Origin: Bacteroidales bacterium
GTDB lineage: Bacteria; Bacteroidota; Bacteroidia; Bacteroidales; UBA932
Reading direction: 5' to 3'
NCBI GenBank assembly: GCA_017430365.1
Contig: JAFRNC010000005.1
Location: 124,001-188,000 of the forward strand
DNA: 64,000 nt
Positions 13,265-37,760 of this stretch are shown here, piece by piece. How positions within the stretch are numbered: position 1 is the first letter of the stretch; each line of letters opens with the position of its first letter. A program made the position numbers and the translations under genes. The notes under the pieces are model-generated. The model was not told where the DNA came from, did no database searches, and saw only the letters and a program-made list of their open reading frames with translations.

Positions 13265-16246
13265 TCATCTGGCCTCGCGGTATGCCTCTTTCCAGGTTTT
13301 TCCCACGGCCACCGGCGGGTGGGTATAAAGTACGGCACTCTGCCGTGACTGAGCGGAATAGCTGACAGAACTCGTCGGCTTGGTCTTGCGGTTGACTGCG
13401 TCGTATTTCACGAAGTCTTCGTAATTATAGGTCCAGCTGTCTCCGTAAGCCAGCTTATGGAGACGGTACCATATGGCTTCGCGTGAAGGGGCGTTGAATC
13501 CTCCCGTATTGTCACGCATGATACTGTTAACGGTCGGACGCCATGCTCCTCTCGTGTAGGTGCAGGCACCTTCGAATACTCCCAGTCCGTCATATTTATA
13601 ACGGTCGTCCGTAAGGAACTTCGCCCACTTCACCTTGGACGGATCACCGGTGAAATCGACATTCTTCCACCAGCCCCATTTTTCCTTCTGGTGATGTATA
13701 TCTATTTCAGGGTTGGGAATAGCTGACTCGGTATTTGTATACTCGTCCGCCAGTTTTGCAAAGCCGTGTCCGCCCGCTTCATGGTGCAGAGAAGAGGCAA
13801 GGGTCTCGTCATTCCCTCCGGCGGTAAAGTATGCTATAGCGAAGCCGCAGCCATAATCGTTATTGCCCGAAGCGGGATCGAAAAAATAACAGGTTCCGCC
13901 GAACCGCCAGGCCTCATTCATGGCCACGATGATAAGCGTATTGTCCATCTTCTCCTGCGGTACAGCCTTCAGCGCATACTCCATGCACTGGGTATTGGAG
14001 CCTCCCACCATTGTGACGCCTCCGAAAAAGGTCCCGAGAGCCTGGCCGGCATTCTCATAGCCTTCTGTGGCAGAGACCACGTTTATCGCATAGACATTGA
14101 ACATTTTCCGATAGGTTTTGTACGGCTCCTCGGAGAAGAAGGCGTCTGCCATTTTCTTCATCACGGTCGCATAGGTCCCGTCTGCAACCTGACGGTCGGA
14201 GTATCCGTCGCCCATCAGGACGATGTCGATACCGTTGCCTTCAGTTGCCTTCTGCAGCACGGTCACTTCTCCGTCCTTGCTGTAGTCCTTGGACATATAG
14301 TAATCCGGAGCGGGGAGGTCATTGTAATGGAACCCCTTGACATGATCGGCATATTTCGACCAGGCATAGGATTTCTTATACAAGCTTTCCATGCCTTCCG
14401 GCACCAGGATGGTCAAACCTTCCAGATCCAGGGATTCGTCTTCCTCATAAGCCGGAGGGGTATAGGTACGGAACATGATCGTATCCAATTTCTTGTCTCC
14501 CTGGAATGCGTTGCTCCTCAGATTTGACAATTTTGCGGACAGACGGATCGTCCTCAGGGACTCCATTCCAATAAAAGCGGCATCATAAAGGCTTGCCACA
14601 TTATCCTGCAGCGTCAGGCGTTCCGTGGTCTTGTTGCCTTCGAAAACACGCCAGAATATATTGGTGACCTCCGCAGGCAAAGTATAATCGACAGGAAGGT
14701 CCGGGACGACGCCGACAAGGAAATTGCCATAAAGAAGCAGGCAGCGATGGTCTTCGGATGCCAGCGGACCATAGAAGGCTTCCAATTGATCACACCCTAA
14801 CAACCAGTTCGTATAAAAGGTTTCGCACGAACGGGGTATCGTCAGGCTGCGCAGGGTTTTATTGTTCCTGAACGCGTCGCCAGAAATGGAGATTACACCG
14901 TCCGGAACCACACACTCGGCGGCACCGTAACCTGCAAATGCAATCAGCCGGTTATCAGGGTCTATGTACATGCGCCCGTCTTTGACATACTTGCAGTCGC
15001 CCTTGAATTCCCGCAATGCGGAACACATCTCGAAAACATAATCGCCAAGGGTTTTCAAACTCGCGGGGAAAGTTACGGTTTCCAAATTCTCGTTATATGT
15101 GAAACACCTGTCCCCTATCGTGACCAGACCTTCCGGAAGTATCACGTCCTTGATCTTTGTCTGTGCCCGGAACAACTGTTGGGGCAATGACTTCACGCCG
15201 TTCGGAACTACCAGTGTCCCATCCTTGGGAAGGGATGCGGCCGCATATGCGATCAATTCCCCGTCAAGGACAAGGAACTTCTCATCGGCGGTGGCGCACT
15301 TTCCATACAGCCGTTTCAACTCGTTGTTAAAGGCAAATATGCCGAATCCGACGGATTTCAGGTTATCCGGGGCACGGAAAGAAGTAAAGCGGCTGAATAT
15401 GAATGCCTGGTTCCCAATCCTCTCTACAGTGTTGGGCAGATGGATTTCGGTAATCCCCTCACCGAATACCGGGTCGAATCCATTGCCGCCGACACGGGTA
15501 AGGGGACCGTCAAAAACGATCACCCACTTGCCGTTCTTGTATGTATGGGAAATTATGCTCCTGTCAAAATCCGAGGGATTGACCGGGGCCTGTGTGTTGT
15601 TTGCGGTGGCATACCATATCTGGTCGGACGGAACATTGTCCGGATCGCTTTCCTGGACAACCTTGACAAGAGTCTCTCCGATGGCGGTCTTGAAGGTCAA
15701 ATTGCCCTCGCGGGACGATGTCCCGGTGTTCGGACTCACCTTGATCCCCACTTTTTCAGTTGTGAGCCCCTTTGTGCCGGTTATGGTTATCCATCCTTTG
15801 GCGTCATCGCTCACGGCAACGGTATATGCCACGTTGTGCTGCACCGTAATTTCATATTCACCACCTTCGAACGGTACGTCTACCTGCAACGGCGAAACAA
15901 TGACTCCGGAGTTTTCAGACTGGGTGACATTGACCGTAGCGGTCAGCTCTTCACAGGTGAAGGTGATCGAACAGGAGCGGGAATCATATGTATCATTGGG
16001 TTCGCATGTGACCGAAATGCTCATGTTGCTGTCGGATCCGTTTCCCGATGGGTTCGAGACTTTGCACCAGGACTGGCCGGATCTGGCCGTCCACGCCTTG
16101 TTCGCAAAAAGCGATACGGTCTGGCTGCCGCCTTTGTTGTCGAAGGTCAGAGATGCCGGACTCACGGACAATTCCGTTTTCTTGGCACAGGAGGTGACGA
16201 AAAGGCAAAATACGATGCCCGTCAGGAGGAATAATGCTTTTTTCAT
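13265..16246 (-). CDS. Lipoprotein with BACON, BspA-like LRR and M64 metallopeptidase domains
   Basis: A 993-residue surface lipoprotein with signal MKKALFLLTGIVFCLFVTSC and Cys20 as the lipid anchor. Two BACON domains follow (about 28-112 and 115-200), a module usually linked to carbohydrate or mucin binding. About 235-640 is a BspA-like leucine-rich region with repeats such as LKSVGFGIFAFNNELKRLYG. The C-terminal part (about 665-960) is an M64 (IgA-peptidase-like) metallopeptidase with H822-E-A-G-G-H827-GF and LADEY. The spacing is HExxxH rather than HExxH. It probably cleaves host or dietary glycoproteins at the cell surface; this is inference. The start is set by the signal peptide. Confidence 0.9.
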   Translation of the reverse strand: MKKALFLLTGIVFCLFVTSCAKKTELSVSPASLTFDNKGGSQTVSLFANKAWTARSGQSWCKVSNPSGNGSDSNMSISVTCEPNDTYDSRSCSITFTCEELTATVNVTQSENSGVIVSPLQVDVPFEGGEYEITVQHNVAYTVAVSDDAKGWITITGTKGLTTEKVGIKVSPNTGTSSREGNLTFKTAIGETLVKVVQESDPDNVPSDQIWYATANNTQAPVNPSDFDRSIISHTYKNGKWVIVFDGPLTRVGGNGFDPVFGEGITEIHLPNTVERIGNQAFIFSRFTSFRAPDNLKSVGFGIFAFNNELKRLYGKCATADEKFLVLDGELIAYAAASLPKDGTLVVPNGVKSLPQQLFRAQTKIKDVILPEGLVTIGDRCFTYNENLETVTFPASLKTLGDYVFEMCSALREFKGDCKYVKDGRMYIDPDNRLIAFAGYGAAECVVPDGVISISGDAFRNNKTLRSLTIPRSCETFYTNWLLGCDQLEAFYGPLASEDHRCLLLYGNFLVGVVPDLPVDYTLPAEVTNIFWRVFEGNKTTERLTLQDNVASLYDAAFIGMESLRTIRLSAKLSNLRSNAFQGDKKLDTIMFRTYTPPAYEEDESLDLEGLTILVPEGMESLYKKSYAWSKYADHVKGFHYNDLPAPDYYMSKDYSKDGEVTVLQKATEGNGIDIVLMGDGYSDRQVADGTYATVMKKMADAFFSEEPYKTYRKMFNVYAINVVSATEGYENAGQALGTFFGGVTMVGGSNTQCMEYALKAVPQEKMDNTLIIVAMNEAWRFGGTCYFFDPASGNNDYGCGFAIAYFTAGGNDETLASSLHHEAGGHGFAKLADEYTNTESAIPNPEIDIHHQKEKWGWWKNVDFTGDPSKVKWAKFLTDDRYKYDGLGVFEGACTYTRGAWRPTVNSIMRDNTGGFNAPSREAIWYRLHKLAYGDSWTYNYEDFVKYDAVNRKTKPTSSVSYSAQSRQSAVLYTHPPVAVGKTWKEAYREAR

Positions 16247-16372: not shown

Positions 16373-16747
16373 TCAGATTATTTCCTCATACTGCGCAGCA
16401 GAAAGGAGAGTATCAAATTCCGAAGGATCGGAAAATTTGATCTTGATCATCCATCCCTCTCCGTAAGGATCGGAATTTACCAATTCGGGGGCGCCTTCGA
16501 GTGCGGGGTTTACCTCGGCAACTTCGCCGGAAACCGGCATGAAAGCGTCAGCTACGGTCTTGACGGCCTCGATGGTACCGAAGACCTCTTCCTTTGCGAG
16601 GGTTTCGCCCTCGGTCTGGATGTCAACGAAAACGATGTCGCCCAGTTCGCTCTGTGCGAAATCGGTAATGCCTACGATGGCCTCGTCGCCTTCGACGCGG
16701 ACCCATTCGTGATCTTTCGTGTATTTAAGTTCAGCAGGAATATTCAT
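16373..16747 (-). CDS. gcvH: Glycine cleavage system H protein
   Basis: The lipoyl carrier of the glycine cleavage complex, 124 residues. Lys63 in [15 protein letters not shown] is the lipoylation site. The N-terminal [25 protein letters not shown] and the [13 protein letters not shown] region are family signatures. It stands alone: gcvT and gcvP are not in the window. It has its own promoter (TATATTTG at 16776-16783), a good Shine-Dalgarno (AGGAG, unusual in this phylum) 5 bases before ATG, and a terminator. Confidence 0.97.
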
Positions 16748-21059: not shown

Positions 21060-21075
21060 TGTTCTACGTGGAACA
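21060..21075. promoter_or_regulatory. Imperfect parS-like palindrome (or operator)
   Basis: TGTTCTACGTGGAACA differs from a perfect palindrome at one pair. It sits between the mnmG stop and the promoter of the acyl-CoA synthetase gene. It resembles the ParB site consensus TGTTnCACGTGnAACA with one change in the core. Confidence 0.5.
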
Positions 21076-21076
21076 G

Positions 21077-23080
21077 TCAACGGCCAAAATATACAAGAAG
21101 GACGGAAATGTCCGCGGGAGAGACCCCGGAGATACGGGAAGCCTGGGCTATCGTCCGGGGACGGTAGCGTTCAAGCTTGATACGGCATTCCATCGAGAGG
21201 GCGGTCAGGCGCTGAAAATCGAAATCGTCAGGAATTTCCAGATCTTCAAGGCGTAGTATCTTTTCGGCGAGGCGGCGCTCCCGGTCTATATACCCTGCAT
21301 ACTTGATCCGGATTTCAGCCGCATCGAGGATTTCTTTTTCGTCGTATCGTATCTCCGCCGGGACTTCCCTGCCGGACCAGGGGAAACGAAGTGCGATAGA
21401 TTCTGCTCGAAGCGCAGATTCCAGTCTTTGGTCGCAATAAGTCGCCATCAGGCGACCGCCGGAGGCCGGGTCAACACATGTTCCACGTGGAACATCAGGC
21501 AGATAATCGAGTATCCCGGAGATGGAGACCATCGGGCGGACAAGAAGTTCGGCAGCCCTCTTCGACGTCTCAATCGGCGAGGAGCCGACTGATTCCAGAT
21601 AAGGGTTGATGACTTCCGGCTTCAGCGAAGCGGCCTGCAGAGTCTCGAGTAACAGGTCTATACGTTTATACTTATTTATAAACGTTTCACAACGGAAATC
21701 ATCGACTAGTCCAAGATCGCGTCCGAGAGGAGTCAGACGGGCATCTGCATCATCCTGGCGGAGAAGGATCCGATACTCCGCCCTTGAAGTGAACATCCTG
21801 TAGGGCTCGTCAACACCTTTAGTAATAAGGTCGTCGATAAGGACACCTATATATGCCTGGTCGCGCTTGAGTATGAAAGGCTCCCTGCCCGCCAGCTTCA
21901 AGTGGGCGTTTATCCCGGCCATGAGTCCCTGCGCGGCAGCCTCCTCATATCCCGTAGTGCCGTTGACCTGACCTGCAAGATAGAGACCGGGCAACACTTT
22001 AGATTCAAGGGTAGCCTGAAGCTGCGTGGGATCGAAGTAGTCATACTCCACCGCATAGGCAGGACGGAAAATCGTAACATTCTCAAGTCCTTCTATGGCG
22101 TGAAGCGCCTCTATCTGGGTCTCAAGAGGCAGGGAAGAAGAGAAGCCCTGAAGATAATATTCATGGGTATTCCAACCCTCCGGTTCGAGAAACAGCAGAT
22201 GGGAATCCTTCCCGGCGAAAGTGCGGAGCTTGTCTTCTATCGAAGGACAGTAACGGGGACCTACGCCGTGAATCTTACCGGTAAAAAGAGGGGAACGGTC
22301 GAAACCGGTACGCAGAATGTCATGGACCCGTTCATTGGTATGCACCTCGTAACAACTCTTCTGTCCCCTGCCCTGCTGGATCGCGCTCGGCACCGGAAGA
22401 TATGAGAAACGCTCGGGCTTCGCGTCGCCATCCTGCCTCGGAAGGCGGGAAAGGTCGACAGAGCGGACATCTATCCGAGGAGGCGTTCCGGTTTTCATAC
22501 GCCCGACGGAGAGGCCGAGTGAAGCCAGTTGGGAAGAGAGTCCTTTCGATGGCAACTCCCCCAGCCTTCCGCCTTCACTCATCTCGGTACCCACGAACAA
22601 CCGCCCTTCCAGGAACGTTCCGGCCGTCAGAATGACCGCTTTGGCGCCAAATTCCGCGCCCATCCCCAGGCGTACCCCCGAAATTTTCGATTCTCGGAGC
22701 GTTATCGAGGTGACAGAACCCTGCCAAATGTCTAAGCCACAGGTATTTTCGAGAACATAACGCCAGTTCAGCGAAAAGTTCAGTTTATCGCACTGTGCGC
22801 GGGGACTCCACATCGCCGGGCCCTTGGAACGGTTGAGCATCCTGAACTGGATGGTGGAAGCGTCGGTTACGATTCCCGAACATCCACCGAGCGCGTCGAT
22901 CTCACGGACAAGCTGTCCTTTCGCTATTCCGCCCATTGCCGGATTGCACGACATCTGGGCGATTTTGTTCATGTCCTGGGTCACCAGCAGGACACGGGAG
23001 CCCAGACGGGCCGCCGAGACAGCCGCCTCACATCCGGCATGGCCGGCTCCGATGACAATTATATCATACGAGGCGACCAT
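21077..23080 (-). CDS. mnmG: tRNA uridine-5-carboxymethylaminomethyl modification enzyme MnmG (GidA)
   Basis: An FAD enzyme that with MnmE modifies U34 of several tRNAs. The protein is 667 residues. The FAD motif [12 protein letters not shown] is at the N-terminus; [22 protein letters not shown] and [16 protein letters not shown] are family signatures. It is about 35-40 residues longer than usual. The extra length appears to lie around residues 525-565, between LDYLPDVP and [12 protein letters not shown], and a perfect parS-like palindrome encodes part of it. It overlaps the end of ybeY by 22 bases and follows its promoter. MnmE is not in the window. Confidence 0.96.
21479..21494. promoter_or_regulatory. 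Perfect parS-like palindrome inside mnmG
   Basis: TGTTCCACGTGGAACA is a perfect 16-base palindrome fitting the ParB (Spo0J) binding-site consensus TGTTnCACGTGnAACA. It is read as D-V-P-R-G-T-C in MnmG. Confidence 0.7.
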
Positions 23081-31352: not shown

Positions 31353-32138
31353 ATGAATTTTACATTGAAAGTTTGGCGTCAGAGAGACGCGAAAAGCAAA
31401 GGACACTTTGAGACCTATCAGGTGAAAGACATCTCGGAAGGCACTTCTTTCCTTGAGATGATGGATATACTCAACGAACAACTGATCGGTGAGAAGATCG
31501 ACCCTGTCGCCTTCGACGCCGGTTGCCACGGCAAGCAGAGCGGTCCTGTCTCGTTCGACCACGATTGCCGCGAAGGTATATGCGGAGCATGCTCGCTCTA
31601 TATCAACGGCCGTGCCCACGGACCTGAAAGCGGAGTAACTACCTGCCAGCTCTACATGCGCAAGTTCAAGGATGGCAGCACCATCACTATCGAGCCCTGG
31701 CGCAGCCGCGGCTTCCCGGTAATCAAGGACCTCGTGGTAGACCGCGGAGCTTATGACAAGATCCTGCAGGCCGGAGGCTTCATCAGCGTGAATACCGGTG
31801 GTGTTCCTGATGCCAACGCCATTCCCATTCCGAAGAAGGATGCAGACGAAAGCATGGATGCAGCTTCCTGTGTAGGATGCGGTGCATGCGCAGCCACCTG
31901 CAAGAACGGTTCGGCAATGCTGTTCGTCGCAGCACGCGTAAGTTCGCTGGCACTCCTGCCCCAGGGCAAGATCGAAGGAGCCCGCAGGGCGAAGGCCATG
32001 GTGGCAAAAATGGATGAACTCGGATTCGGAGCATGCACGAACACCCGCGCCTGCGAGATGGAGTGCCCGAAGCACATCACCGTCAGCCACATCGCCCGCC
32101 TCAACCGCGAATTCCTCAAGGCGAAGTTCAAAGATTAG
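31353..32138 (+). CDS. sdhB: Succinate dehydrogenase/fumarate reductase iron-sulfur subunit
   Basis: The Fe-S subunit of complex II/QFR, 261 residues. It carries a plant-type [2Fe-2S] motif with Cys in [16 protein letters not shown] and a later Cys in TTCQLYM. The [4Fe-4S]/[3Fe-4S] region follows with [15 protein letters not shown] and [10 protein letters not shown]. It carries electrons between SdhA and the quinone-binding cytochrome b, which is not encoded next to it. A hairpin terminator lies about 125 bases past the stop. Confidence 0.96.
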
Positions 32139-32263
32139 TGTAAAACAGCGGGCCGGTGTTGATAAAATACACCTGTGTTGATAAGCACAATACTTGTCAA
32201 TAATAATCAAGAAGCTTTTCAACAGCCGGTTTTTCAACACAAGTCCGGAATTCCGCAATCAAC

Positions 32264-32312
32264 AAAACCAGCACCCATTTCATCTCAGACGTGAAATGGG
32301 TGTTGGTTTTAT
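32264..32312 (+). terminator. Terminator hairpin after sdhB
   Basis: 19-base arms (32264-32282 and 32292-32310) with one mismatch; the core is CACCCATTTCA/TGAAATGGGTG, loop of 9, ending in TTTT. Confidence 0.75.
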
Positions 32313-32408
32313 GTTGAAATATCTTTTGATAACTTTCCGGAAGATTTTTTTCAACACAATCAACAGGCTAAGAAATAACCGGAAAAGATTTTTAAAAATT
32401 TTATTTAT

Positions 32409-32416
32409 TAATTTTG
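32409..32416 (+). promoter_or_regulatory. Promoter -7 box of ruvB
   Basis: TAATTTTG matches TAnnTTTG, 25 bases before the ruvB ATG. The upstream half is AT-rich without a clear TTTG. Confidence 0.5.
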
Positions 32417-32441
32417 TGTTGTTGACAAAGTTTGCGCTTAA

Positions 32442-33464
32442 ATGGCTGAAGACTTCAATCCAAGGACGGAGGTATCTTTCAGGGAGAGTGATTTCGACAA
32501 GGTGATCCGCCCCCAGAACTTCGAACAGTTCGCTGGCCAGGAAAAGGAACTCGATAATCTGAAGGTTTTCGTGAAGGCCGCCCTGCTTCGTGGCGAAGCG
32601 CTGGACCATGTCCTTTTCCACGGCCCTCCCGGCCTTGGCAAGACCACCCTGGCACATATAGTGGCCTCTGAACTCGGCGTCAATCTTAAAATGACTTCCG
32701 GACCGATACTGGACAAGCCCGGAGACCTTGCAGGGCTTCTGACTTCCCTTGAATCGGGTGACGTACTGTTCATTGATGAAATACACAGGCTGAGTCCCAT
32801 AGTGGAGGAATATCTGTATTCCGCCATGGAAGACTACCGGATTGACATAATGATAGACAAGGGACCCGGTGCACGGAGCGTTCAGATCTCTCTGAATCCA
32901 TTTACGCTTATAGGCGCCACAACCCGCAGCGGTCTGCTTACCGCTCCCCTCAGGGCCCGTTTCGGAATAAAGTGCCATCTCGAGTATTATGATGCTCCGG
33001 TATTGGAAGGTATTGTGAGGCGCAGTGCAGGTATACTCGATATCGAAATAGATGATGATGCGGCACGTGAGATTGCCCTTCGCAGCCGCGGCACGCCCCG
33101 TATCGCCAATTCCCTGCTCCGCAGGGTGAGGGATTTCGCCCAGGTGAGAGGCAACGGTACGATAGATCTCGAAATAGCGAGATATGCCCTCAATGCGCTG
33201 AATATAGACAAGCGAGGTCTCGATGCCATTGACAACAAGATACTCAATACCATAATCGACAAGTTCGGAGGAGGTCCGGTCGGTGCCGGAACGATAGCCA
33301 CTGCCATAAGCGAGGATGCCGGAACCCTGGAAGAGGTTTATGAGCCCTTCCTGATAAAAGAGGGGTTCATCGCACGTACTCCCCGCGGACGTGTAGTGAC
33401 AGAACTTGCATACAAACATCTCGGAAAATTCAATCCTAATCATGAAAAAGATCTTTTCTCTTAG
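32442..33464 (+). CDS. ruvB: Holliday junction DNA helicase subunit RuvB
   Basis: The hexameric AAA+ motor that drives branch migration with RuvA. The protein is 340 residues, the usual length. Walker A is [13 protein letters not shown], Walker B is LFIDEIHRL, sensor 1 is [10 protein letters not shown], the arginine finger is in PLRARFG, and the winged-helix C-terminus ends with [15 protein letters not shown]. The last 23 bases overlap the next gene. It starts at the right edge of the candidate origin region. Confidence 0.97.
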
Positions 33465-34656
33465 TCTTCTGCTGGCGGTCTGCCTTATTGCGGCATTTGA
33501 TTCCGACGCCTGCACGTCCGCGATTTTCACCGGCAAGGCCACTCCCGACGGCCGTCCGCTTCTCTGGAAGCATCGCGATACGGGTGAACTCGACAACAGG
33601 ATGGAGTATTTTCCCGCCGGTAACGGCAGGAAGTACGGTTTTCTCGGACTTGTCAACAGTGAAGTCAAGGACGGGGAAGTCTGGACCGGAACCAATGAGG
33701 TCGGTTTCTCTATCATGAATACTGCTTCTTATAATCTCCAGAGCGAAGCCGCCGATTTCGAAGATCAGGAAGGTGTATTGATGTATCAGGCACTCGGCAG
33801 CTGCAAGACGCTCAAAGACTTTGAAAAGTTCCTCGACAAGATGAAGAAACCCCGTGGGGTCGAGGCTAATTTCGGTGTGATCGACGCTGAAGGCGGAGCC
33901 GCATATTATGAGGTCAACAATACCGAATGGATCAAGATAGATGTAACGGACCCTAAGATCGCTCCGGAAGGATTCCTTATCTATACGAATCATTCCTATA
34001 CCGGACGGAAGGACGATGGAATGGGTTATGTACGCTACAATACGGCCAACGAGATATTCCACAAGGGTTGGATACGCGGCGTTGAATTCACTCCCCAGTG
34101 GATTTTCAACAATCTCTCTCGCAGCTATTACAATTCCCTGCTCGGCATAGATCTCAACAAGAATCCAGAACTGGCTCCGGGAGGATGGTTCGTGGACCAG
34201 GATTTCATTCCCCGCCGCAGCACAAGCGCTTCCATAGTCATTAAAGGTGTCAAACCCGGTGAAAATCCCGATCTTACCGTAATGTGGACCGTACTTGGCT
34301 ATCCGCCTTGCGGTGTTGCCGTTCCTTTGTTCGCCGCCATGAAGGAAAATCAGCCTTCTTTCATGTGCAATAGCAAGGAGAGCGACAATTCCAGTATGTG
34401 TGACGCTGTCCTGAAGAGCAGGGGTAAAGTATTCCCGCTCAGCCGCGGCAACGGCAAGAACTACTTCAATGTGGGTCTTGCCCGGCAATATATCAAATGG
34501 CTTGCCCCGCTCGAAGAAAGGATTTTCATTGTCATGAACGGGGAAATGGAGAGAATGTACGGCAAAGGATCTTTCGATGCTTCCGCTTGCAGGCAGTTCT
34601 ATGATGAATTCACCCCTGTGATCGACATTTATCTTACCCAGGCTCCCGGTAAATGA
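33442..34656 (+). CDS. Secreted C45-like Ntn hydrolase (acyltransferase/amidohydrolase family)
   Basis: A 404-residue exported protein with signal peptide [20 protein letters not shown]. The next residues are SDA and then Cys24 in [24 protein letters not shown], the nucleophile block of the C45 (acyl-CoA:6-aminopenicillanate acyltransferase-like) Ntn family. Signal-peptide cleavage after Ala23 would itself expose Cys24. Further support is the block [24 protein letters not shown]. The amide bond it cleaves is unknown. It overlaps ruvB by 23 bases and mfd by 4, so it is likely translated from the same mRNA. The in-frame ATG upstream lies deep in ruvB and was rejected. Confidence 0.85.
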
Positions 34657-37600
34657 TCCTTTCTTCAAAAGCGGTCTACATAGCAAATGCAGTGAAGCGC
34701 GCCGCTGAAGGTGCGCTTCACGTCGTGATTGCAGGCACTAAGAAAGAGGCTTACTATGTAGCTTCCGACCTGGACAATTTCTTCTGCCAGGAAAACCTGT
34801 TTTACTTTCCTTCCACTCAGGAGAAATCGGAATACAAGAAAAATACAGCGCTTCTGCAGAGGACCGCGGCGCTTTCAGCCATAACACGATGGGAGAAGAG
34901 TCCTGAAGTTCCGAAAGATGGTAGTTATGTCATTTCAAAGGAGTTGTGGACCAAAGTTCCTGTCCGGTCTACGATTGTGGTGACATATACCGAAGCGGCT
35001 GCTGAACGGGTGCTACGTCCCAGGAAGATACGTGAATCTATCCTCACTTTGAGGAAAGGGGAATCGCTGTCGCATGAAGTCATCAGCGAAGTCCTCTTTG
35101 AAGAAGGATTCCGCAAAGCTGATTTTGTGACTGAACCCGGAGAATTCGCGCTGCGCGGTTCCCTCGTGGACATTTTTTCGTTTGCCGATGAAAAGCCTAT
35201 AAGAATAGACTTTTTCGGGGACGAGATAGAGTCGGTGCGTCATTTCAATCCCGACAACCAACTGTCCTACGGGGAGGCGATGGACACTGTTTCAATATAT
35301 CCGAATCTCGACGGCATAGGGGATGAGAAAGAATATGCTGCGTTCAACGACATATTGCCCGAAGGAACGACGGTCTGGGACATCAGGGACGATCTTCTGC
35401 AGAAAGAAGAGGGCAATATAATGCCCCAGCCTGCTTTCGCGAAGAATTTCGAGATGCTTTCCGATGACATAGTCCACAGGCAGATAGAAGGATACGAAGT
35501 AACCATCCTGTCTCCTAACGAAAGCCAGACACGCCGGCTCAGGGAAATACTCCGGAACGTGAAGCCCCATTTCCTTCCCGTTTCGCTCCATGAAGGATAT
35601 ATCGACAAGGATTCGAAGAAATGCTATTATACCGACCACCAGATATTCGAGCGTTATCACAAGCTGAACATACGCCGTCAGGTGGAAAGGTCCGAGCAGA
35701 TGACCATCAACGACCTGAATGCACTCAGGATAGGTGATTATGTGGTACATATCGACCATGGTGTAGGGCAGTACGGCGGATTGGTCAAGACTCATGTGGG
35801 AGACAGGACCCAGGAAGCTGTCAAACTGATCTACAAGGACGGTGACGTGGTCTTCGTCTCGATTCATTCCCTTCACAGGATATCGAAGTTCAAGTCGCGT
35901 GACGGAGAACCCCCGAAGATTTACAGGCTGGGAAGCAAGGCATGGGAAAACCTGAAACGAAATACGAAGTCGAAGGTCAAGGATATAGCCGAAGATCTGA
36001 TCAAACTCTATTCGGAGCGGCAGCAGGCCCGTGGATTCGCATTTTCACATGATTCCTTCATGCAGCACGAACTTGAATCGTCATTCATGTTCGAGGATAC
36101 TCCTGACCAGGCATCGGCTACCGAGGCGGTAAAAGCCGACATGGAGAGTCTCCATCCCATGGACCGTCTTGTGTGCGGCGACGTAGGCTTCGGAAAGACT
36201 GAAGTGGCGATAAGGGCCGCTTTCAAAGCCGTATGCGACAGCAAACAGGTGGCGGTCCTGGTTCCCACCACCATTCTTGCGCTGCAGCATTACCAGACTT
36301 TTTGTTCACGCCTGAAAGATTTCCCGGTTAATATCGATTATATAAGCCGTCTCCGTACGGCTAAGGATATCAAGAGGATAGGTGATAATCTCGCATCCGG
36401 AAAAACCGACATAGTGATCGGTACGCACAGGCTTCTCGGATCCGGCATCAGTTTCAAGGACCTGGGCCTTCTGATAATAGACGAGGAACAGAAGTTCGGA
36501 GTGGCCGCCAAGGAAAAGATACGGCAGATGAAGAGTTCCGTGGATACCCTTACGCTTACGGCGACTCCAATACCGCGCACCCTGCAGTTCTCGCTTCTGG
36601 GTGCCCGCGACCTTTCCATAATAAACACGCCTCCGCCGAACAGGATACCTGTGACCACGGAAGTCATCCGTTTCGACGAAGAGTATCTTTCCGACATCCT
36701 TTCCCGCGAACTGGAAAGGGGAGGACAGGTTTATTTCGTTCACAACAGGGTCGACGACATCATGGCTGTACGGGATATGCTTCACAGGATCTGCCCCAAG
36801 GCGGAGATCTGCGTCGCCCACGGCCAGATGGAACCGCGCGAACTCGAGGGGAAGGTACTCAAGTTCATCAATGGTGACTACGATATCCTCCTCTCCACGA
36901 CCATCATTGAAAACGGAATCGACATACCGAACGCAAACACCATGATAGTCGACCGCGCCCACCGTTTCGGACTGAGCGACCTCCATCAGCTCAGGGGCAG
37001 GGTGGGACGCAGCAACGTGAAGGCATACTGTTATCTCATAGTGCCTGAAGAAGAGACCCTTACCGACGATGCAAGGCGCAGGATACGTGCGCTCGAGGCT
37101 TTCAGCGACCTTGGAAGCGGATTCAATATCGCCATGCAGGACCTCGACATACGGGGTGCGGGCAACCTGCTGGGAGCCGAGCAGTCCGGTTTCATGGCGG
37201 AGATGGGATTCGAGACATACATGCGTATCCTTAAGGAGGCCATGAACGAACTTGCCCTCTCCAGGCCTGCCGGAGAGGACGAAAACCTTCCTCCGATCAA
37301 TTACGAACTCGATACGCAGGTGGACACCGACCTTGAACTTATGATTCCCGACAGCTATGTGAATGTTCCGAGCGAAAAGATCAGGCTTTACAAAGAACTG
37401 GACGGCATAAAGTCGGAGGACCTGCTGAAGCGTTTCACGGCAAATATTGCAGACAGGTTCGGATCTCCCGTGCCCAGACCGGTACTTGAACTCATAGATG
37501 TCGTGAGACTCAGGATGATGGCCGGAAAGATCGGTATAGAGAGGATAGTACTCAAGAACGGCATCATGCTTGCCTGGTTCATAGCAGAAAGGAATCACCC

Positions 37601-37760
37601 CTTCTTCCAGTCCGACCGCTTCGGGTCGCTGCTCCAGCAGATAGCCGCTCGGAAGTCCGGCATAAGCCTCCTCGAAAACAACGGAAAACTCTATTTCAAG
37701 GTTCCGGGCATAGATTCGGTCCAGGCCGCGACCAAGGTTATAGCATCGTTTTTGGTATAA
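34653..37760 (+). CDS. mfd: Transcription-repair coupling factor Mfd
   Basis: An SF2 translocase that removes stalled RNA polymerase and recruits UvrA. The protein is 1035 residues, about 75-110 shorter than usual, the shortfall being at the N-terminus. Visible in order are the UvrB-like N-terminal region, the RNA-polymerase-interacting domain RIGDYVVHIDHGVGQYGG (about 365), Walker A GDVGFGKTEVAIRAAF (about 508), DEEQKFGV, LTATPIPRTLQFSL, the helicase C motifs TTIIENGIDIPNANT and QLRGRVGRS, and a C-terminal TRCF domain. The ATG overlaps the previous stop (ATGA). Confidence 0.96.
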   Translation: MILSSKAVYIANAVKRAAEGALHVVIAGTKKEAYYVASDLDNFFCQENLFYFPSTQEKSEYKKNTALLQRTAALSAITRWEKSPEVPKDGSYVISKELWTKVPVRSTIVVTYTEAAAERVLRPRKIRESILTLRKGESLSHEVISEVLFEEGFRKADFVTEPGEFALRGSLVDIFSFADEKPIRIDFFGDEIESVRHFNPDNQLSYGEAMDTVSIYPNLDGIGDEKEYAAFNDILPEGTTVWDIRDDLLQKEEGNIMPQPAFAKNFEMLSDDIVHRQIEGYEVTILSPNESQTRRLREILRNVKPHFLPVSLHEGYIDKDSKKCYYTDHQIFERYHKLNIRRQVERSEQMTINDLNALRIGDYVVHIDHGVGQYGGLVKTHVGDRTQEAVKLIYKDGDVVFVSIHSLHRISKFKSRDGEPPKIYRLGSKAWENLKRNTKSKVKDIAEDLIKLYSERQQARGFAFSHDSFMQHELESSFMFEDTPDQASATEAVKADMESLHPMDRLVCGDVGFGKTEVAIRAAFKAVCDSKQVAVLVPTTILALQHYQTFCSRLKDFPVNIDYISRLRTAKDIKRIGDNLASGKTDIVIGTHRLLGSGISFKDLGLLIIDEEQKFGVAAKEKIRQMKSSVDTLTLTATPIPRTLQFSLLGARDLSIINTPPPNRIPVTTEVIRFDEEYLSDILSRELERGGQVYFVHNRVDDIMAVRDMLHRICPKAEICVAHGQMEPRELEGKVLKFINGDYDILLSTTIIENGIDIPNANTMIVDRAHRFGLSDLHQLRGRVGRSNVKAYCYLIVPEEETLTDDARRRIRALEAFSDLGSGFNIAMQDLDIRGAGNLLGAEQSGFMAEMGFETYMRILKEAMNELALSRPAGEDENLPPINYELDTQVDTDLELMIPDSYVNVPSEKIRLYKELDGIKSEDLLKRFTANIADRFGSPVPRPVLELIDVVRLRMMAGKIGIERIVLKNGIMLAWFIAERNHPFFQSDRFGSLLQQIAARKSGISLLENNGKLYFKVPGIDSVQAATKVIASFLV

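What the first reader, a model, noticed from the sequence alone, without database searches (positions are those of the whole stretch)
32139..32441. Possible chromosomal replication origin between sdhB and ruvB
In 303 bases there are at least five 9-mers of the type TTATCAACA or TTTTCAACA (in either orientation), plus near matches, next to an AT-rich tract. These differ from the E. coli DnaA box TTATCCACA at one or two bases. Most genes left of the gap point left and most genes right of it, up to about 47.8 kb, point right, as expected around an origin. Two parS-like sites lie about 11 kb away. Against this, dnaA is not in the window, no perfect box is present, and the sdhB terminator lies inside the cluster, so part of it is transcribed.
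Basis: partly seen in the sequence, partly recalled or inferred. Interest (0 to 1): 0.7.

Follow-up and report, generated by a model that had tools for sequence, protein, structure and literature searches.

The report
Chromosome replication origin beside ruvB
The gap between two ordinary genes is very probably where this uncultured gut-type Bacteroidales bacterium starts copying its chromosome; that is an expected kind of element, though its address next to ruvB, far from dnaA, marks this bacterial family and I found no published description of it.

Summary
In detail: five exact TTWTCAACA 9-mers lie in 200 bp (32157-32356), with five more degenerate or one-mismatch slots. The whole 2.67-Mb genome has only 99 TTWTCMACA sites, and no other place has five together. 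Across 14 genomes of the genus, ten box slots are kept while the spacers between them have drifted to 45% identity. Across the family, the same words are the most enriched 8-mers upstream of ruvB; in 28 other Bacteroidales families they are mostly absent there. In two closed genomes of the family, the cumulative GC-skew minimum falls inside the ruvB upstream gap to within a few hundred bases, and skew reverses again near the antipode. parS lies 5-19 kb away in every relative that has it. A tandem box pair, a GC-rich spacer and AAG-AAA-TAA repeats (32348-32378) run into the AT-rich tract and match the published basal unwinding system; the module is unique in the 261-kb contig. This is the chromosomal oriC (about 95%). 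One weak point is the own contig: skew does go from negative to positive, but its minimum is 21 kb to the right. No replication experiment was possible. It is a new member of a known kind.

The parts
32139..32441 (.). oriC: whole sdhB-ruvB intergenic region, 303 bp, 66% AT
   Evidence: Box density; genus alignment; skew minimum at the homologous site in closed relatives
32157..32165 (-). DnaA box, slot A, TTATCAACA
   Evidence: exact in 8 of 14 genus genomes, <=2 mismatches in 13
32176..32184 (-). DnaA box, slot B, TTATCAACA
   Evidence: <=1 mismatch in 14 of 14
32216..32224 (+). DnaA box, slot C, TTTTCAACA
   Evidence: <=1 mismatch in 12 of 14
32231..32239 (+). DnaA box, slot D, TTTTCAACA
   Evidence: <=1 mismatch in 14 of 14
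32257..32265 (+). DnaA box, slot E, decayed here (CAATCAACA); exact box in 10 of 14 genus genomes, in five of them the E. coli consensus TTATCCACA
32259..32317 (+). sdhAB terminator hairpin; its outer stem uses slots E and F as inverted repeats
   Evidence: -34.6 kcal/mol, z = -8.1; stem covaries CACCCATTTC/GAAATGGGTG, CACCCGTTTC/GAAACGGGTG, CACCTGTTTC/GAAACAGGTG
32312..32320 (-). DnaA box, slot F, ATTTCAACA
   Evidence: <=1 mismatch in 13 of 14
32324..32332 (-). weak DnaA box, slot G, TTATCAAAA
   Evidence: <=2 mismatches in 12 of 14, <=1 in only 5
32348..32356 (+). DnaA box, slot H, TTTTCAACA: first box of the unwinding module
   Evidence: <=1 mismatch in 14 of 14
32357..32365 (+). DnaA box, slot I, CAATCAACA (GTTTCAACA in most relatives): second, weaker box of the unwinding module
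   Evidence: <=1 mismatch in 13 of 14
32366..32378 (+). GC-rich spacer GGCT and three DnaA-trio-like triplets AAG AAA TAA
   Evidence: Only tandem box + spacer + (NAN)x3 arrangement in the 261-kb contig; 88% pairwise identity across the genus against 45% in spacers
32383..32422 (.). AT-rich duplex-unwinding tract (90% AT over 40 bp), also carries the conserved TAnnTTTG of a probable ruvB promoter
   Evidence: 0.008% of 40-bp windows of the contig are as AT-rich; alignment
32420..32428 (-). DnaA box-like slot J, TTGTCAACA, between probable ruvB promoter and ruvB
   Evidence: Invariant in 14 of 14 genomes
21479..21494 (.). parS, exact palindrome TGTTCCACGTGGAACA, inside mnmG (gidA)
21060..21075 (.). 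second parS, TGTTCTACGTGGAACA, just past the end of mnmG
31353..32138 (+). sdhB/frdB, left flank
   Evidence: Pfam Fer2_3 and Fer4
32442..33464 (+). ruvB, right flank
   Evidence: Pfam RuvB_N, AAA_lid_4, RuvB_C

Best explanation
The 303-bp gap is the chromosomal replication origin (oriC). DnaA, encoded elsewhere (C11:236 kb), binds about ten 9-mer boxes (consensus TTWTCMACA). From the tandem pair at 32348-32365 it would pass over the GGCT spacer onto the single-stranded triplets AAG-AAA-TAA and open the AT-rich tract 32383-32422, where the helicase is loaded; forks leave in both directions and ParB at the two parS sites 11 kb away segregates the new origins. A terminator between the left boxes and the unwinding module stops sdhAB transcription before it. 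Shown: the elements, their uniqueness and conservation, skew and parS linkage in relatives. Inferred: DnaA binding, opening, helicase loading and ParB action.
For: Unique box cluster in the genome. Ten slots kept across 14 genus genomes with drifting spacers; background slots have <=1 genome with a near match. Across the family, TATCAACA, TTATCAAC, TTTCAACA, TTTTCAAC and TTATCCAC are among the top seven enriched 8-mers upstream of ruvB without prior choice, and 24 of 30 genomes have boxes within 500 bp, also where sdhB is not the neighbour. Closed relatives: skew minimum at 671,968 in G034 (boxes at 672,020 and 672,150; ruvB from about 672,425) and at 16,396 in G041 (box at 16,386; ruvB from about 16,190); sampled whole-chromosome skew changes sign there and again near the antipode. 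parS on the same contig 5-19 kb from ruvB in 11 of 12 relatives and nowhere else. C10 is the only large contig of the own genome with a sustained negative-to-positive skew change. Unwinding module unique in the contig, AT tract in the top 0.008%. DnaA has the standard box-reading helix GGKDHATVLHA.
Against: The own contig's skew minimum is at C10:177,705 (window 53,705), 21 kb to the right, also after correction for gene direction; the contig's skew is weak. No box in the window copy is the perfect E. coli word. Six of 30 family genomes have no exact box within 500 bp upstream of ruvB. No replication data.
Confidence: 0.95

Rival explanations
1. The boxes are only a regulatory region of ruvB (or sdhAB), bound by DnaA or another repressor, and the origin lies elsewhere.
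For: A TAnnTTTG element and the invariant TTGTCAACA box sit just before ruvB; dnaA's own upstream region also has a TTATCAACA (C11:237,300).
Against: ruvB in 24 of 28 other Bacteroidales families has no box upstream, so the boxes do not belong to ruvB as such. A promoter does not explain the skew minimum, the parS linkage or ten boxes. A dual role (oriC that also regulates ruvB) is not excluded.
Confidence: 0.03
2. The origin is near C10:177.7 kb (window 53.7 kb), where the own contig's cumulative GC skew is lowest.
For: Raw and gene-direction-corrected skew minimum at 177,705.
Against: No box cluster there: the contig's best 300-bp windows other than 156 kb hold at most four near matches and none of them lies there. 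In closed relatives the minimum is at ruvB. The 20 kb right of ruvB also has negative skew in G029 of the same genus, which points to local gene composition.
Confidence: 0.015
3. A chance or composition-driven cluster of AT-rich words.
For: The gap is 66% AT and intergenic.
Against: 0 of 20,000 composition-matched simulations reach five (maximum 3); slots are conserved across species.
Confidence: 0.001

Closest known systems
Predicted Bacteroidetes oriC regions far from dnaA, e.g. Prevotella intermedia OMA14 chromosome 1 (PMC4755523) and Elizabethkingia meningoseptica (PMC8994065)
   Same: Cluster of DnaA boxes in a gap away from dnaA, located with GC skew (skew on relatives here)
   Different: Boxes mostly TTWTCAACA rather than TTATCCACA; neighbour genes sdhB and ruvB; support from conserved slots across species and from parS linkage
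Basal unwinding system (BUS) of bacterial oriC, Bacillus subtilis type (PMC8287927, PMC6669920)
   Same: Tandem box pair with the upstream box the better match, GC-rich gap of 4 bp, 13 bp from the better box to the first triplet (10-13 bp is the published peak), three NAN triplets, then an AT-rich tract
   Different: Triplets are AAG-AAA-TAA, not the commonest 5'-TAG; not tested biochemically
E. coli oriC (from my own knowledge)
   Same: Boxes in both directions beside an AT-rich unwinding region, mnmG/gidA in the neighbourhood (about 10 kb here)
   Different: Not next to mnmG/mioC; a terminator inside the box array; ruvB next door

Membership tests
Bacterial chromosomal oriC (DnaA-dependent) | Cluster of DnaA boxes denser than anywhere else in the genome | tested here: met
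Bacterial chromosomal oriC (DnaA-dependent) | Position at the cumulative GC-skew minimum | tested here: inconclusive
   Met to within a few hundred bases in two closed family members; own contig changes sign as expected but its minimum is 21 kb off
Bacterial chromosomal oriC (DnaA-dependent) | AT-rich duplex-unwinding element beside the boxes | tested here: met
   90% AT over 40 bp, 0.008% of windows
Bacterial chromosomal oriC (DnaA-dependent) | DnaA with a box-reading domain is present | tested here: met
   PF00308 183 bits at C11:236 kb; GGKDHATVLHA
Bacterial chromosomal oriC (DnaA-dependent) | parS sites near the origin | tested here: met
Bacterial chromosomal oriC (DnaA-dependent) | Replication starts here in vivo | not testable with these tools
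   Needs read depth or an autonomous replication assay
Basal unwinding system (BUS) | Box (<=2 mismatches) paired with a second box (<=4), spacer <=16 bp, at least three NAN triplets | tested here: met
   32348-32378, only one in 261 kb under stricter settings; criteria from PMC8287927
Basal unwinding system (BUS) | DnaA oligomer opens the strand at the triplets | not testable with these tools
   Needs footprinting or a strand-separation assay

The most novel reading that the evidence does not exclude
The origin doubles as the control region of ruvB: the invariant box TTGTCAACA after a conserved TAnnTTTG promoter element would let DnaA repress or time ruvB, tying the supply of Holliday-junction helicase to replication initiation in this family.
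Probability: 0.25. Interest if true: 0.5.

Novelty: new member of a known kind. Interest (0 to 1): 0.35.

Why it matters
It gives a precise, conserved origin address for a large family of uncultured gut Bacteroidales in which the usual landmark, dnaA, fails. That helps peak-to-trough growth estimates from metagenomes, correct rotation of assemblies and the construction of replicating vectors. It also shows that ruvB marks the origin in this family but, on the evidence here, not in the rest of the order.

Tried and rejected
The whole genome was not available as a file, so skew was sampled from stretches. Third-position and orientation-corrected skew of the own contig did not move the minimum to the gap. 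A wider rule 'oriC beside ruvB in all Bacteroidales' was rejected: 24 of 28 other families have no box upstream of ruvB. 'oriC beside mfd' was also not seen in other families. sdhB as the landmark was rejected: outside the genus-like group, sdhB loci have no clusters. A minor group of four boxes in 1.7 kb at C7:337-338.7 kb is much looser. Literature searches for oriC with ruvB or for Cryptobacteroides found no prior report; the library is open-access only and DoriC itself could not be queried.

Full report
What is there. The gap between sdhB (31353-32138) and ruvB (32442-33464) is 303 bp long, 66% AT, and holds five exact TTWTCAACA words at 32157(-), 32176(-), 32216(+), 32231(+) and 32348(+), plus one-mismatch copies at 32312(-), 32324(-) and 32420(-). 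A Markov model of the gap itself gives 0.07 on average and at most 3 in 20,000 trials. The whole draft genome (2,669,652 bp, 11 contigs; the window is C10:124001-188000) has 99 TTWTCMACA sites and no second cluster of five.

Conservation in the genus. sdhB-gap-ruvB is kept in most sampled genomes of the genus. An alignment of 14 gaps shows ten box slots. Nine of them have a near match (<=1 mismatch) in 10-14 genomes and slot G has one in 5. Spacer columns average 45% pairwise identity, boxes mostly 77-100%. Random positions have a near match in at most one genome. Boxes change among TTATCAACA, TTTTCAACA and TTATCCACA while staying boxes, as expected if a protein reads them. The window's missing slot E (CAATCAACA at 32257) is an exact box in 10 of 14.

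Conservation in the family. With ruvB as the landmark, 24 of 30 family genomes have at least one and 20 have at least two exact boxes within 500 bp upstream, whether or not sdhB is the neighbour. An 8-mer enrichment done without naming a motif puts TATCAACA (23 of 30 genomes, 2.0 expected), TTATCAAC, TTTCAACA and TTTTCAAC on top, with TTATCCAC sixth. In 28 other families of the order the ruvB upstream region has no such enrichment, and 24 of 28 have no box at all. The signal therefore belongs to this lineage's origin, not to ruvB genes in general.

GC skew. Two relatives are single contigs. In G034 (2,229,011 bp) sampled skew is mostly negative before and positive after about 0.67-0.70 Mb, and turns back between 1.70 and 1.87 Mb; the antipode of ruvB is 1.787 Mb. 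The fine cumulative minimum over 110 kb is at 671,968, beside boxes at 672,020 and 672,150 and 0.46 kb before ruvB. In G041 (2,657,245 bp) the change back is near 1.24-1.49 Mb (antipode 1.34 Mb) and the fine minimum over 172 kb is at 16,396, on the box at 16,386, with ruvB starting near 16,190 on the other strand. In the own genome the other large contigs keep one dominant sign or are weak or mixed, C8 turns from positive to negative near its start, and C10 alone shows the sustained negative-to-positive change expected of an origin. Its minimum, however, is at 177,705, 21 kb right of the gap, and correcting for gene direction does not move it to the gap. A same-genus genome, G029, also has negative skew in the 20 kb right of ruvB, so I read this as local composition; it remains the one mismatch.

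parS. TGTTCCACGTGGAACA at 21479 is the only site within two mismatches of the classical parS in the whole genome; a one-mismatch copy is at 21060. The exact site is inside mnmG. In 11 of 12 relatives the pattern occurs once or twice, always on ruvB's contig and 5-19 kb from ruvB, on either side. Chromosomal parS sites sit near oriC (general knowledge; reviewed in PMC7022226, seen by title and abstract only).

How it should work. The most conserved stretch beside slot J is TTTCAACA-GGCTAAGAAATA. In the window it reads TTTTCAACA (32348) CAATCAACA (32357) GGCT AAG AAA TAA, running into a 40-bp, 90% AT tract (32383-32422) matched by only 0.008% of windows in the contig. This meets the criteria of the basal unwinding system as published (a box pair with the upstream one better, about 4 bp GC-rich gap, at least three NAN triplets, spacer peak 10-13 bp; PMC8287927); here the spacer is 13 bp. 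A stricter form of that search finds it once in 261 kb on both strands. The orientation of the triplets relative to the boxes was taken from my knowledge of known origins. Binding, opening and helicase loading are inferred.

Transcription. A strong hairpin (32259-32317, -34.6 kcal/mol, z -8.1) whose stem covaries between species lies between slots A-D and the unwinding module, so sdhAB transcription probably ends before the module; slots E and F form its outer arms. Just before ruvB, TAnnTTTG (the -7 element of Bacteroidetes promoters, from my knowledge) and TTGTCAACA are invariant or nearly so, so ruvB is probably transcribed from within the origin and possibly controlled by DnaA. That last point is speculation.

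Comparison. dnaA lies on another contig (C11:236 kb). This is usual: in Bacteroidetes oriC is commonly far from dnaA (PMC4755523). I found no published description of a ruvB-adjacent origin or of an origin in this group. The element is an ordinary chromosomal oriC with a lineage-specific address: a new member of a known kind.

Noticed in passing
window 21060-21494: Two parS sites 419 bp apart at and inside the 3' part of mnmG (gidA); the pair is repeated in many relatives at 300-1200 bp spacing.
   Followed up: yes
G000:C11:237300 (upstream of dnaA): A TTATCAACA box lies just upstream of the dnaA reading frame, as expected for DnaA autoregulation.
   Followed up: partly
window 34653-37760 and G041:C1 about 16,600: mfd is two genes downstream of ruvB here, but in G041 it starts divergently from the other side of the origin gap, so the gene order around the origin has been reshuffled within the family.
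   Followed up: partly
G000:C7:337025-338724: Four TTWTCAACA words in 1.7 kb, the next densest group in the genome; not examined further.
   Followed up: no
window 32442-53700: About 21 kb right of the origin has negative GC skew although most genes up to 47.8 kb point away from the origin, so the own skew minimum is displaced.
   Followed up: partly
L145 (G029, same genus): In G029 four boxes lie 866-1049 bp upstream of ruvB instead of in the adjacent 300 bp, and no sdhB was found in that genome: the origin seems to have a changed left neighbour.
   Followed up: no
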